A DNA stretch of 64,000 nucleotides from a virus. The notes beneath the pieces were generated by a model. It was given only the letters and a program-made list of their open reading frames with translations. It did no database searches and was not told the DNA's origin. The translations under genes and the position numbers were made by a program. The DNA is taken from IMG/VR virus record IMGVR_UViG_3300027906_000003, positions 1 through 64,000 of that record, one strand, 5' to 3'. Positions 2,277 through 18,585 of this stretch are shown here, piece after piece (positions within the stretch are counted from its first letter, which is position 1; every line of letters starts with the position of its first letter).

Positions 2277-2600
2277 GTGATAGAAGTTACCGATAACGCA
2301 ATACAAAAACTCCTGGAAAAGAAAGTCGATAATATAAGACTAGGACTAACAGGTGGTGGGTGTGCTGGTTACGAATACTTCATCGAACATGCAGAGAATA
2401 TAACCGATAGTGATACATTAATTGACTATGGTAAGTTTAATGTTGTTGTAGATAGTTTATCAGTCCCTTATTTGAGTGGTTCAACCTTTGATTGGATACA
2501 AGAAGGACTAAATGAATATTTTAAAATTATTAACCCAAAGGAAGTTTCTTCTTGTGGGTGTGGAGTGAGTGTGCAGTTTAATGAAGACCTCATCAGCTAA
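2277..2600 (+). CDS. A-type iron-sulfur cluster carrier (IscA/ErpA/HesB family)
   Basis: The 107-residue length is typical of A-type Fe-S carriers, which accept clusters from the scaffold and deliver them to apo-enzymes. The three cluster-ligand cysteines are present: C29 in GGGCAGYEY, and C93 and C95 in the C-terminal SSCGCG. It starts with GTG; the region just upstream is G-rich (AGGTGGT). It overlaps the next gene. A plausible client is the radical SAM enzyme at 8.3 kb, which needs a 4Fe-4S cluster, but that link is inference. Confidence 0.88.
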   Translation: MIEVTDNAIQKLLEKKVDNIRLGLTGGGCAGYEYFIEHAENITDSDTLIDYGKFNVVVDSLSVPYLSGSTFDWIQEGLNEYFKIINPKEVSSCGCGVSVQFNEDLIS

Positions 2601-2913
2601 AGCAAAAGGTAGAAGATTACAACAATGGGTCGCAAAGATGTTAGTTGAACATCTAGGTGCAGACGAAGAAGATTTAGAATCAAGACCTATGGGTTCTAGT
2701 GGTGAAGATATCATCATGGGAAAACAGACTAGACAAATCTTCCCTTATAGTGTAGAATGTAAGAATCAGGAAAAGGTTAATGTGTGGTCATCATATGAAC
2801 AGGCAGAATCAAACTGTAAAGGGTATGAACCCTTAGTAGTAATTAAAAAGAACGGTAAGAAACCACTTGCTGTAATAGATGCAGAATACTTTGTGGAGTT
2901 GCATAACAAATGA
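2581..2913 (+). CDS. PD-(D/E)XK endonuclease-like protein (Holliday-junction-resolvase type)
   Basis: The short (110 aa) basic protein carries the nuclease-fold signature in order: an N-terminal basic helix (KAKGRRLQQWVAKML), SSGEDI with the first acidic residue, then VECKNQ giving the E-x-K pair, followed by a helix and a C-terminal beta region. Such small nucleases in T4-like phages are thought to process branched or nicked DNA; the exact substrate here is unknown. The ATG at 2581 was chosen; an in-frame GTG at 2569 would add four residues but sits only three bases from GGAG. Confidence 0.65.
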   Translation: MKTSSAKAKGRRLQQWVAKMLVEHLGADEEDLESRPMGSSGEDIIMGKQTRQIFPYSVECKNQEKVNVWSSYEQAESNCKGYEPLVVIKKNGKKPLAVIDAEYFVELHNK

Positions 2914-4295
2914 TTAGAACTTTTAACGAGATAGTTTTACAAGAAGCTAAGGAGAATAAAAATCCTTATCGTCTGGTTGTTCTCGCCGAAAAACCTAAGA
3001 AGTCAAACCCCAAAGCTACAAGTGCAAAGATAGTTAAACTTGCAAAGTCATTAAGACTTGAAGTATACGATTGTAGAATCAATGGTGCCTTTATCATGCG
3101 TGATGAAGAGAGTGGTCAATTAACAATTCATAGAGAAGATGATTCATTTGGATTTGAAATCGATGAAGATACAGTTGTTCTCATTCGTGGTGCCGTTGGT
3201 AAGAAAGATTCATATCTGGATTTAATATCTCAATTAGAGAGATATGGTATTCCTGTTTGCAACTTTAGAGAAACAATCGAAGTATGTGGAGATAAGTTTA
3301 GATGTTATCTTCGACTACAAGAGATTGGTATGAATCAACCTAAAACTGTATTGATACCAAATGCAGAGAAAGAATCAGTAGAGACTGCTCATGAGGCATT
3401 GAAGTCTAAGTTCCCTATGGTGTTAAAGACACTACAAGGAAGTAAAGGTGTTGGTGTTCTATTAATCGAAACAGAAAGGTCATTACAATCAACCGTTCAA
3501 TTGGTTTATAAGATTGACCCATTTGCAGATATACTATTACAAGAATACATTGAAGTTGACTTTGATGTCAGATGTATTGTTGTGAATAAAGAAATCATAG
3601 GTGCAATGAAACGACCTAAGATACTTGATGACTTTAGAAGTAATGTCTCACAAGGTTCTGAACCAGAAGAGATTAAACTTACAGAAGTTGAACAAGAGTC
3701 AGTTCTACAGGCTGCTAAAGCGGTGAACGGACAATGGGTTGGTGTAGACTTTATGCCAGCAAAGAACAGAGATAAAGACGCACCATACATTATCGAAGTT
3801 AACCATTCACCTGGTACCGAGGGTATCAACAAAGTAATAGATGGTGATATTAATAAAATTGTTTTAGAAAATCTCCTAGATAGAGATTCATGGAAACGAA
3901 GTGCAACAGAATGTGGTGTATTAGAAACATTAGAAGTTGAAGGACAGGAACTAACTGTTAAGATGGATACTGGTAATAATACAACGACTTGTGCCTTGCA
4001 CGCCGATGACTTGACTGTAAAAAATAAAGTAGTCACATGGACTACAGAAGGAGTAAAATATAAGAAACCTCTACATCGATATGTAGAATTATTAAAACCC
4101 GCCGAGAAAAGACCGGTCGTTCTATTGGAAATAAATTTTCTAAATACAGTTTATGAAGTAGAAGTTTCGTTAGACAAAAGGAATCAAATACCATTCCTTG
4201 CTAACAGAGACTTTATGAAACGAGCAAACATAATGATAAATCCTGCTCGTAAATTTATGTTGACAAATAGAAACGATGAACACGAAAACGGTTAA
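2910..4295 (+). CDS. RimK-like ATP-grasp ligase fused to a RimB-like (Zn_protease/retropepsin-type) domain
   Basis: The first 330 or so residues form an ATP-grasp enzyme of the RimK/alpha-L-glutamate ligase group: a pre-ATP-grasp region, then MVLKTLQGSKGVGV (nucleotide loop), DFDVRCIVV, and the metal-binding IIEVNHSPGTEGI. Family members add glutamate to protein C-termini, classically ribosomal protein S6. Residues about 345-455 match the small aspartic protease-like family that accompanies RimK in bacteria (RimB): the active-site motif is D353-T-G, followed by CALHADDL and a C-terminal NRDFMKRANIMINPARKF. In bacteria the two are usually separate genes. Here one polypeptide would both add and trim. 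The target is unknown; host S6 or the phage bS21 at 18.35 kb are guesses. Confidence 0.82.
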   Translation: MIRTFNEIVLQEAKENKNPYRLVVLAEKPKKSNPKATSAKIVKLAKSLRLEVYDCRINGAFIMRDEESGQLTIHREDDSFGFEIDEDTVVLIRGAVGKKDSYLDLISQLERYGIPVCNFRETIEVCGDKFRCYLRLQEIGMNQPKTVLIPNAEKESVETAHEALKSKFPMVLKTLQGSKGVGVLLIETERSLQSTVQLVYKIDPFADILLQEYIEVDFDVRCIVVNKEIIGAMKRPKILDDFRSNVSQGSEPEEIKLTEVEQESVLQAAKAVNGQWVGVDFMPAKNRDKDAPYIIEVNHSPGTEGINKVIDGDINKIVLENLLDRDSWKRSATECGVLETLEVEGQELTVKMDTGNNTTTCALHADDLTVKNKVVTWTTEGVKYKKPLHRYVELLKPAEKRPVVLLEINFLNTVYEVEVSLDKRNQIPFLANRDFMKRANIMINPARKFMLTNRNDEHENG

Positions 4296-4983
4296 TATCC
4301 AAGAACGAATGCGAAACAAGGCCATCGAGGCCTTAGACATCGTTGAGTTTGAAATTGACAAACTCATGGATAAACAACAAGTTCCTTTTTCTATGTATAA
4401 GTATCTTCGAAACTTAGGATACTCAGGTAAAGTTATTGCATACATGAAAGGTTTCACCCATGAAATGCAATACGAACTAAAGAATGAAGAGAAGTGTGAA
4501 CAGTTAGCAGAAGCATATAACTTCCTTACAAAAGGTCAGAAGACTAAAGTCTTAAAGAAACTCCAATCATTCGAAGATGATATAGAAAAGTATTGTGACG
4601 AATACAAACCAGTTCGTAAACCTAGAATTAAAACACCTGCCCAACAGGTTAAGAAACTTCCATATCTTGCAGAGTGGGAGAAATATAAATCAATAAATCC
4701 AGAAGAAATCATTCGTGCATCGATGTTGTTTGGATACAACATATCCACAAAGAAACTTACTATGTTTAAATCATATGGTGGTTTAAGAGTAATAGGAAGT
4801 AAAATAATGGATGCAGACGAATGTATAGAAAAGACCTTGACAGATTTGAAGTTGCTTGATAGACTGGTATCAGGTGGTAATATTATTGCTAAAGGTTTCA
4901 TGGACGAGATACCTCGTTCTAAAGAGAAAGAAGGAAACAATAGAATTACTAAGAATACATTATTAATTAAAGTGATAAGATGA
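4276..4983 (+). CDS. Hypothetical protein of T4-like phage type
   Basis: This 235-residue protein is not recognised by function. It is lysine-rich and mostly helical in composition, with a basic linker around residues 110-130 (KPVRKPRIKTPAQQ). It overlaps the RimK-like gene by 20 bases and its own end overlaps the RNase H start by four bases (ATGA), so it lies in the same operon. Its position next to RNase H suggests a nucleic-acid role, but no catalytic motif is visible. Confidence 0.6.
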   Translation: MNTKTVNIQERMRNKAIEALDIVEFEIDKLMDKQQVPFSMYKYLRNLGYSGKVIAYMKGFTHEMQYELKNEEKCEQLAEAYNFLTKGQKTKVLKKLQSFEDDIEKYCDEYKPVRKPRIKTPAQQVKKLPYLAEWEKYKSINPEEIIRASMLFGYNISTKKLTMFKSYGGLRVIGSKIMDADECIEKTLTDLKLLDRLVSGGNIIAKGFMDEIPRSKEKEGNNRITKNTLLIKVIR

Positions 4984-7878: not shown

Positions 7879-8311
7879 ACGAAAGTATACCGTCCAGCAA
7901 TTCAACAAAGAACAAATAAGTAGAATCTATTCAGAGAGACCCTTTGAAGAGAATCTACTTAGGTTCAATCTACCAGAAGACCTTACAATTTTTCTTGGTC
8001 TACAATTAAAACAATCAGCATATATCTTTAAGAAGTTAGATAGTAAGAAAAAAGAAAACTTCTATATCAGTGCAATCTCTTATCCTTGTTCTCGTATCGG
8101 TGAGACACTAGAGGCAAGAGAAGTTCCTACATATAACTACAAAGAAAACGGAGACCCTAAGTCGTGTCTAGTGAATCAACTAGAAGACCCACAATTTATT
8201 CTTCTACATCCAACATGGTGTAATTTAGAAGAGGGTGATGTAATAGAGTTTCAATATGTAGAGGAAGAAGAACCTGATACAGAAAGGTATATAGAAGTCC
8301 ATGTCTCGTAA
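7841..8311 (+). CDS. Hypothetical conserved phage protein
   Basis: The ATG at 7841 was chosen because GAGGAG sits seven bases upstream; an upstream in-frame start would run deep into the previous gene. The 156-residue product begins MVMMMSETV and contains SYPCSRIGETLEAREVPTYN and a C-terminal acidic segment with GDVIEFQYVEEEE. The pattern suggests a small beta-rich protein. No function is recognised. It overlaps the preceding gene by 38 bases and the radical SAM gene by 11. Confidence 0.6.
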   Translation: MVMMMSETVDTSKRKYTVQQFNKEQISRIYSERPFEENLLRFNLPEDLTIFLGLQLKQSAYIFKKLDSKKKENFYISAISYPCSRIGETLEAREVPTYNYKENGDPKSCLVNQLEDPQFILLHPTWCNLEEGDVIEFQYVEEEEPDTERYIEVHVS

Positions 8312-9221
8312 TATTCCAGTCACAGCAGTTGACCAATACGATTTTCTCCAGCACAGAAGAGAGCAGGAAGAAAAACATTGGAAGAAAAATAGTGGAAGTA
8401 ATCCATTAGATTCTATTCTTACTGTAGAGGTTAATACAACAGAACTATGTAATCGTAAGTGTGTGTTTTGTCCTAGAAGTGACCCAAATGTTTATGACAA
8501 TAAAAACTTACATCTTACAGTTAAAGGTGCAAGAATAATCTCAGAAGAGTTGGCCGATAATGGGTACCAAGGAAAGATTTCCTTTAGTGGATTTGGGGAG
8601 AATCTCCTAAATCCAAACTTTATAGAAATAGTTAAAGAGTTTCATTTAAATCTTCCAATGGCAACATTAGAATGTAATACAAACGGAGATAAACTTACAG
8701 AAGATTATGTCCATTCATTATACAAATCAGGATTATCTTTACTCTATATTAATCTATATGATGGTATAGAACAGATGGAACATTTCGACAAGATGATGAA
8801 GAATGTGAGAGAAGAACAATACAAATATAGGTTACATTGGGGAGACTTTGAGAAACATGGATTAATATTAAACAATCGTAGTGGTGTTATGGATTGGGTT
8901 GGCATAGAAGAGTCAGACATTCAATCACTTAAAGGTAAACCTTGTCACTATCCATTTTATAAAATGTTTGTGGATTGGAATGGTGATGTATTGTTTTGTT
9001 CTAACGATTGGGGTAAAGAACATGTTGTAGGTAATCTTATGCAATCCACTTTACACGAAGTATGGTTTAGTAAACCAATGAACAAGATTAGAAAGAGATT
9101 AATGAAAGGAGATAGAAGTCATTCTCCTTGCAACAAGTGTAGTGTAGATGGTTCACTATTTGGAAAACCGTCATTTGATATAGTTAAGGAATATTATGAA
9201 AGTAGCAATAACAGGAAGTAG
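8301..9221 (+). CDS. Radical SAM protein with C-terminal SPASM-like domain
   Basis: Radical SAM enzymes cleave S-adenosylmethionine with a 4Fe-4S cluster to start radical chemistry. The cluster motif CNRKCVFC (C50, C54, C57) is intact, followed by FSGFGENLLNP, the usual GGE-like SAM-binding region, and LECNTNG. The C-terminal part has C215, C233 and CNKC (C277, C280) in an FVDWNGDVLFC context, typical of SPASM domains that hold extra clusters and act on peptides or sugars. The 306-residue protein overlaps the next gene (SDR) by 26 bases, suggesting a joint pathway. The substrate is unknown. Confidence 0.85.
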   Translation: MSRNIPVTAVDQYDFLQHRREQEEKHWKKNSGSNPLDSILTVEVNTTELCNRKCVFCPRSDPNVYDNKNLHLTVKGARIISEELADNGYQGKISFSGFGENLLNPNFIEIVKEFHLNLPMATLECNTNGDKLTEDYVHSLYKSGLSLLYINLYDGIEQMEHFDKMMKNVREEQYKYRLHWGDFEKHGLILNNRSGVMDWVGIEESDIQSLKGKPCHYPFYKMFVDWNGDVLFCSNDWGKEHVVGNLMQSTLHEVWFSKPMNKIRKRLMKGDRSHSPCNKCSVDGSLFGKPSFDIVKEYYESSNNRK

Positions 9222-18351: not shown

Positions 18352-18585
18352 ATGCCAGAAGTGAAGCCAAGAATCAACCCTAAGAATCGACAGGAAGAAC
18401 CTTTCGATAGAATGCTTAGGAGATTCAAGAAACAGTGTGAAAGAGCTGGTATAGTTCAAGAGGTTAGAGATAGACAATATCACATCAAACCAAATACTAT
18501 AAAGAATCAAAAGAACCAAGACATCAAAAGACGAAAGAAACTTGATGCAAAGAGAGCTTCAATAAAAGGTTATAGACCAAGATAA
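18352..18585 (+). CDS. rpsU: Ribosomal protein bS21, phage-encoded
   Basis: bS21 sits on the 30S platform next to the anti-Shine-Dalgarno end of 16S rRNA and helps initiation. The 77-residue product has the family pattern: [36 protein letters not shown], then a long lysine/arginine-rich helix ([12 protein letters not shown]). Phage bS21 copies are known from marine phages and are thought to enter host ribosomes and bias translation. It has one of the strongest ribosome sites in the window (AAAGGAGA) and a structured region upstream. It overlaps the next gene by TAATG. Confidence 0.88.

What the first reader, a model, noticed from the sequence alone, without database searches (positions are those of the whole stretch)
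2910..4295. RimK ligase and RimB-type protease domain fused in one phage protein
The ATP-grasp domain is intact and is followed by a retropepsin-like domain with D353-T-G and CALHA motifs. In bacteria these activities are separate proteins of the rim operon that modify ribosomal protein S6. A fused writer/eraser in a phage that also carries bS21 suggests direct manipulation of the ribosome or of another protein C-terminus.
Basis: partly seen in the sequence, partly recalled or inferred. Interest (0 to 1): 0.7.

Follow-up and report, generated by a model that had tools for sequence, protein, structure and literature searches.

The report
Phage RimK–RimB fused protein-tail enzyme
Many marine T4-like phages carry one protein that can probably both add and cut chains of glutamate at protein ends, and its front end looks like the tag T4 uses to pack proteins into its head, so it may be injected into the host with the DNA.

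Summary
Window 2910-4295 encodes a 461-aa RimK ATP-grasp ligase fused to a C-terminal RimB-like retropepsin. Profiles, a confident AlphaFold model, and a phage-built RimB profile that finds bacterial rimB beside rimK all agree. Catalytic residues of both domains are present in 92 of 92 fused relatives, as are poly-glutamate-binding R401 and R424. It is a widespread phage family in two fixed gene contexts, plus Yersinia phages and rumen jumbo-phage contigs.

A bacterial hybrid (RimBK) was published in 2025, with the domains in reverse order. All RimK-RimB fusions found here lie in phages or on phage-like contigs. Nothing points to bS21, which is 14 kb away and does not end in Glu.

New here: most of these proteins begin with a T4-type capsid-targeting leader ending in a prohead-protease site. 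A motif built from them ranks T4 ipII and ipIII first of 135 T4 proteins. The Yersinia relative was detected in virions by mass spectrometry. I propose a head-packaged, ejected poly-glutamate writer/eraser. Packaging and substrate are inferred; the window copy's own leader is weak. New variant of a known kind; interest 0.6.

The parts
2910..4295 (+). rimKB: RimK-type ATP-grasp ligase + RimB-type retropepsin, 461 aa
2910..2945 (+). N-terminal leader MIRTFNEIVLQE (residues 1-12), capsid-targeting-like, ending in an LxE prohead-protease-type site before A13; in the model residues 1-17 are mostly of low confidence and lie before the fold
   Evidence: the window copy has a one-residue longer spacer and is not significant on its own with the fixed-spacing motif
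2967..3290 (+). PreATP-grasp region (residues 20-127)
   Evidence: AlphaFold model and Foldseek match to RimK over about 305 columns; R93 invariant
3291..3869 (+). RimK ATP-grasp domain (residues 128-320)
   Evidence: PF08443 E 1.8e-35; K173, D219, R221, R243, N245, D280, E296, N298 in 92/92
3906..4265 (+). RimB-like retropepsin domain (residues 333-452)
   Evidence: PF05618; 9g59/2pma; its HMM finds bacterial rimB next to rimK
3960..3974 (+). K351-M-D353-T-G355: catalytic Asp and poly-Glu-binding Lys (K46/D48 of RloA)
   Evidence: D/T/G 92/92, K 91/92; mapping from spacing; RloA residues from PMC12239564
4110..4112 (+). R401, equivalent of poly-Glu-binding R114 of RloA
   Evidence: 92/92; 23 residues before R424, as R114 to R137 in RloA
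4179..4181 (+). R424, equivalent of poly-Glu-binding R137 of RloA
   Evidence: 92/92
2569..2913 (+). upstream RusA-like resolvase gene overlapping rimKB by 4 bases; constant neighbour
   Evidence: phrog_244 E 3.2e-21; synteny
4276..4983 (+). downstream gene of unknown function (phrog_11903), constant neighbour; its start overlaps rimKB

Best explanation
RimKB is a bifunctional poly-alpha-glutamate enzyme carried by phages. Its ATP-grasp half ligates glutamates onto a protein C-terminus (or onto poly-Glu) and its retropepsin half trims poly-Glu chains, so one polypeptide sets tail length. The leader routes it into the prohead core, the phage's gp21-type protease clips the leader after LxE, and the mature enzyme is packaged in the head and ejected with the DNA. 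There it acts at once on a host protein, most plausibly ribosomal protein bS6. Shown by computation: the two domains, catalytic and poly-Glu-binding residues, purifying selection, two fixed gene contexts, and a family-level leader matching T4 internal proteins. Inferred: enzymatic activity, packaging and ejection, substrate. My step estimates: active poly-Glu ligase/protease 0.85; head-packaged in at least part of the family 0.6; bS6 as main target 0.35.
For: RimK identity. RimB identity: (an HMM built only from phage C-termini finds ORFs directly 5' of rimK in about 45 bacterial loci, mostly E 1e-9 to 1e-20). Poly-Glu specificity: K351/R401/R424 match RloA K46/R114/R137; R114A and R137A cripple poly-Glu cleavage (PMC12239564); conserved in 91-92 of 92. 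Glutamate contacts R189 and N262 of RimK (PMC10092738) correspond to R221 and N298, 92/92. Leader: a motif trained on RimKB ranks T4 ipII and ipIII 1st-2nd of 135 proteins (10.6 vs next 6.9), ipI 4th, gp22 5th, gp24 9th (hypergeometric 8e-5). It is rare or absent in about 20 neighbouring gene families and absent from 119 bacterial rimK/rimB/rimBK ORFs at the same threshold. Cross-lineage held-out test: 62% and 75% of sequences exceed 99% of shuffles. The phage has gp21 protease and gp22 scaffold and a 99-aa ORF between portal and gp21 starting MKSFQQMTEELNEA. A prohead-protease match lies in the same record or MAG as the other lineages tested. YerA41 g112, the 33%-identical relative, is a middle gene and was detected in virions by LC-MS/MS (PMC7354516).
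Against: No biochemical or proteomic data on this protein. With the fixed-spacing motif trained on the other lineage the window copy scores no better than shuffles; a loose regex hits about 10% of all ORFs; 13 of 90 family members lack the pattern. In Mosig the motif trained on the window lineage ranks RimKB 3rd of 194, with gp21 4th and gp22 6th but two unrelated proteins above. The YerA41 particle list of 63 proteins contains many enzymes, so carry-over is possible, and its homologue lacks the T4-type leader. The gene sits in early/replication-type operons. The published bacterial RimBK did not glutamylate SBW25 RpsF. bS6 of one marine alphaproteobacterial order mostly does not end in Glu, and the host of this phage is unknown.
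Confidence: 0.5

Rival explanations
1. The same poly-Glu writer/eraser, but made in the cell as an early/middle protein and never packaged; the leader is just a variable N-terminal extension or a chaperone-binding helix. It remodels host translation (bS6) during infection.
For: Position in early operons: 46 loci have RimKB right after regA, mostly followed by gp43; about 31 have RusA-[RimKB]-4276. YerA41 relative is a middle gene. Leader motif weak in the window copy. RimK is a known translation modulator in Pseudomonas (PMC4741518, PMC11957791).
Against: Leader conserved in form across two lineages and matches T4 internal proteins best. T4 ip and alt genes are also away from the head cluster.
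Confidence: 0.3
2. The substrate is not ribosomal: RimKB builds or trims poly-Glu on a phage protein or makes free poly-glutamate, changing glutamate pools or charge balance.
For: RimB stimulates free poly-Glu synthesis by RimK, and RimBK did not modify RpsF in the published test. Several phage proteins end in acidic tails. bS6 tails of one candidate host order mostly do not end in Glu.
Against: No specific substrate identified; the acidic tails are ordinary for a phage proteome.
Confidence: 0.3
3. The ligase joins something other than glutamate, like LysX, MptN or glutathione synthetase (the annotation in Mosig), and the protease domain is a processing partner.
For: MptN, LysX and GSH-S profiles also match at lower scores. 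The S7-R8 acceptor contacts of RimK seem absent (by eye, not tested).
Against: Best profile and fold matches are RimK; fusion to a poly-Glu-type protease with all three binding residues kept.
Confidence: 0.1
4. A decayed or non-catalytic fusion.
For: Single-copy Pfam score for RimB below the gathering cut-off; flap about 18 residues shorter than in bacterial RimB and DTGN in place of DTGA.
Against: Catalytic residues in 92/92 relatives; dN/dS 0.05-0.19 in both domains.
Confidence: 0.02

Closest known systems
RimBK hybrid of Desulfotalea psychrophila and other bacteria (PMC11957791)
   Same: RimK ligase and RimB retropepsin in one polypeptide; DTG active site
   Different: Domain order reversed (RimB first); cellular; phage fusions form a separate group in both domain trees
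RimK/RimB (RimABK) system of Pseudomonas
   Same: Same two activities predicted, poly-alpha-glutamate; K46/R114/R137-type residues and R189/N262-type residues kept
   Different: Separate proteins plus RimA; phage protease has a shorter flap and DTGN; substrate in phage unknown
RloA retropepsins (9g58, 9g59; PMC12239564)
   Same: Retropepsin fold, poly-Glu-binding residues
   Different: RloA has a signal peptide, is secreted to the periplasm and is not fused to a ligase
T4 internal proteins IPI-III and Alt
   Same: Leader of the form M-x-x-[FY]-x-E-[FIL]-[IL]-x-E (IPII, IPIII); Alt is an injected host-modifying enzyme
   Different: No T4 internal protein is known to me as an ATP-grasp ligase or protease; packaging of RimKB not shown
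Cyanophage RimK (phrog_2599, S-RIM8, S-RIM12)
   Same: Phage-borne RimK
   Different: RimK alone; S-RIM8 copy starts at the fold without a leader and groups with bacterial RimK
Yersinia phage YerA41 g112 / GN1
   Same: RimK-RimB order, 33% identity
   Different: Different phage type, next to ribonucleotide reductase; detected in virions but leader not T4-like

Membership tests
RimK (alpha-L-glutamate ligase) | RimK ATP-grasp domain above curated score | tested here: met
   PF08443 122.7 vs 21 bits; TIGR00768 162.8 vs 143.4
RimK (alpha-L-glutamate ligase) | ATP- and glutamate-binding residues (K141, N213, R189, N262) | tested here: met
   K173, N245, R221, N298 in 92/92
RimK (alpha-L-glutamate ligase) | S6-specific equivalog (PRK10446) | tested here: not met
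   90.5 bits vs cut-off 331: RimK family, not the E. coli S6-specific subgroup
RimK (alpha-L-glutamate ligase) | Glutamylates S6 C-terminus | not testable with these tools
   needs purified protein and bS6
RimB / Zn_protease retropepsin | PF05618 above gathering score | tested here: inconclusive
   window copy 20.6 vs 27 bits; one family member scored 29.9 bits, above the cut-off; 44/48 match at E<0.01
RimB / Zn_protease retropepsin | DTG catalytic motif and retropepsin fold | tested here: met
   92/92; 9g59/2pma E 2e-6, 6e-6; viral fold hits named zinc/acid protease
RimB / Zn_protease retropepsin | Poly-Glu-binding Lys/Arg (K46, R114, R137) | tested here: met
   K351 91/92, R401 and R424 92/92, same D-2 and 23-residue spacing
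RimB / Zn_protease retropepsin | Cleaves poly-Glu, dimeric | not testable with these tools
   needs biochemistry
Published RimBK hybrid | RimB N-terminal to RimK | tested here: not met
   order is RimK-RimB; so not filed as RimBK
T4-type internal head protein | N-terminal capsid-targeting leader with LxE site | tested here: inconclusive
   met for most of the family (77/90 loose; 62-75% above 99% of shuffles); window copy alone not significant
T4-type internal head protein | Phage encodes the prohead protease | tested here: met
   PF03420 E 3e-38; also in Melnitz, GN1 and rumen contigs
T4-type internal head protein | Present and clipped in virions | not tested
   only literature on a 33%-identical relative

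The most novel reading that the evidence does not exclude
A widespread class of capsid-packaged, injected poly-glutamylation enzymes: marine T4-like phages deliver a self-regulating C-terminal glutamate writer/eraser with their DNA to retune host ribosomes or another host protein before any phage gene is expressed.
Probability: 0.35. Interest if true: 0.82.

Novelty: new variant of a known kind. Interest (0 to 1): 0.6.

Why it matters
It places both halves of a bacterial protein-tail polyglutamylation switch in one protein carried by abundant ocean phages, including a cultured SAR11 phage (Mosig). If it is packaged and ejected, it would be an injected protein-ligase effector, parallel to T4 Alt but with different chemistry. 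It makes the open question of what RimK/RimB do outside S6 directly testable, and it corrects annotations (Mosig 'glutathione synthetase', GN1/YerA41 'structural protein').

Tried and rejected
bS21 as substrate: rejected as unsupported (C-terminus KGYRPR, 14 kb away). Phage-encoded S6: none in the record. Single-sequence structure prediction failed (pLDDT 34). First genome scan with one sequence found nothing. 'K-B order also in bacteria': the Firmicutes-binned contigs with that order look viral; in two of three MAGs (G002, G003) the same contig also carries a T4-type prohead protease, so treated as jumbo phage. Loose leader regex: about 10% background, so only family-level and held-out tests count. 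Host: 15 of 28 genomes of one alphaproteobacterial order matched the family profile; one (G001) is the phage contig itself, two carry a strong RimK-length match (E about 1e-41 and 1e-44), the rest are weak ATP-grasp matches; the window phage's host remains unknown. bS6 tails there do not decide the question. The PDB fold search listed only ATP-grasp hits because they fill the list, so the retropepsin fold rests on profiles and the viral fold search.

Full report
Observation. The ORF at 2910-4295 (+) is 461 aa, overlaps the upstream RusA-like gene by 4 bases, and its second Met is residue 63. Pfam gives RimK at 128-320 (E 1.8e-35) and Zn_protease at 344-450 (E 4.3e-4, below the gathering score). 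NCBIfam puts it in the RimK family above its cut-off but far below the S6-specific equivalog, and finds RloA retropepsin models in the C-terminal part, well under their cut-offs. The family profile matches RimK structures (E 1e-36 to 1e-41) and retropepsin-like chains 9g59, 2pma and 9g58 (E 2e-6 to 5e-5).

Fold. With 48 relatives AlphaFold2 gives pLDDT 83.8, pTM 0.77; residues 1-3, 7-17 and 453-461 are low. Foldseek against PDB returns RimK of Pseudomonas and E. coli on top, including the RimK-RpsF complex entry. Against viral models it returns ATP-grasp proteins plus small phage proteins, some named zinc protease or acid protease, with lengths near the C-terminal domain.

Independent test of the C-terminal domain. 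An HMM made only from phage C-termini finds, in bacterial loci fetched by the ligase half, an ORF directly 5' of rimK in about 45 loci, mostly E 1e-9 to 1e-20. That is the rimB-rimK arrangement, so the domain is RimB by homology and by context.

Residues. In 92 fused relatives K173, D219, R221, R243, N245, D280, E296, N298 and D353-T-G-N are in all; K351 in 91, R401 and R424 in all. RloA uses catalytic D48 with K46, R114 and R137 gripping poly-Glu, and R114A/R137A cripple it (PMC12239564). K351 is D-2 like K46, and R401 to R424 is 23 residues, as R114 to R137; the alignment agrees. RimK R189 and N262 touch the glutamate chain (PMC10092738); the alignment maps them to R221 and N298. The phage flap is about 18 residues shorter and the motif is DTGN, not DTGA. 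dN/dS is 0.05-0.19 in both domains.

Distribution. Two contexts are fixed: carbamoyltransferase-IscA-RusA-[RimKB]-4276-exonuclease (about 31 loci, this window), and gp45-gp44-gp62-regA-[RimKB]-gp43 (46 loci with regA next to RimKB, including cultured Pelagibacter phage Mosig, 42% identity). Yersinia phages GN1/YerA41 carry it beside ribonucleotide reductase. Rumen 'Firmicutes' contigs with the same order also carry a T4-type prohead protease, on the same contig in two of three. In trees of each domain the phage and rumen fusions separate from bacterial RimK/RimB/RimBK; the Melnitz RimK-only gene nests with the phage group, a likely loss of RimB, and S-RIM8 RimK groups with bacteria (long branches, quick method).

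What is already known. RimBK hybrids exist in bacteria, RimB first, with proven protease activity but no RpsF glutamylation seen (PMC11957791). I found no paper describing the phage fusion in the held library; it covers open-access papers only.

Leader. The proteins start 17-20 residues before the fold with forms such as MKTFNEIISE|A, MKSFNELLTE|A, MKAPKFREFITE|A. T4 ipII and ipIII start MKTYQEFIAE|A. A motif trained on RimKB ranks ipII and ipIII first of 135 T4 proteins, ipI 4th, gp22 5th, gp24 9th; 5 of 10 prohead-core or gp21-processed proteins are in the top 9 (p 8e-5; the list of ten is from my own knowledge, in line). Neighbouring phage genes and bacterial rimK/rimB lack it almost entirely. 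Trained on one lineage and tested on the other, 62% and 75% of sequences beat 99% of shuffles. Limits: the window copy, with a one-residue longer spacer, is not significant in that test; a loose regex has about 10% background. This phage encodes gp21, gp23 and a gp22-type scaffold, and an ORF between portal and gp21 starts MKSFQQMTEELNEA. In T4 such leaders target proteins to the prohead core and gp21 removes the N-terminal peptide; Alt enters the host with the DNA and IPI protects DNA after injection. YerA41 g112, the relative in a Yersinia phage, is a middle gene detected in virions (PMC7354516), though that list is rich in enzymes.

Mechanism and uncertainty. Best reading: a head-packaged poly-Glu writer/eraser acting on a host protein C-terminus on entry. 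Domains, residues and selection are computed here. Packaging is a family-level inference. Substrate is unknown: bS21 is unsupported, and bS6 is plausible only by analogy, with bS6 tails of one marine alphaproteobacterial order mostly not ending in Glu.

Noticed in passing
485-1654 and 1647-2267: A Nol-like carbamoyltransferase (phrog_1601) is split into two overlapping ORFs here and both pieces recur in about 25 related contigs, so the split is probably real rather than a sequencing error.
   Followed up: partly
L095-L101: RimKB genes in public genome assemblies of Sphingobacteriales, Saprospiraceae, Parcubacteria, Chloroflexi, Thaumarchaeota and others appear to be phage contigs binned into MAGs.
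   Followed up: partly
L103, L104: 400-kb contigs labelled Firmicutes carry a T4-type prohead protease on the same contig as RimKB: probably rumen jumbo phages in bacterial MAGs.
   Followed up: partly
2277-2600: IscA/SufA-type Fe-S carrier in the phage, constant neighbour.
   Followed up: no
8301-9221: Radical SAM protein of unknown role downstream of the same gene run.
   Followed up: no
18352-18585: Phage bS21 (TIGR00030 E 1.5e-13) ending in KGYRPR.
   Followed up: partly
L180:309-1793: A 494-aa protein of the same phage record with no PHROG match also starts MKSFQQY...LEE and may be another packaged protein.
   Followed up: no
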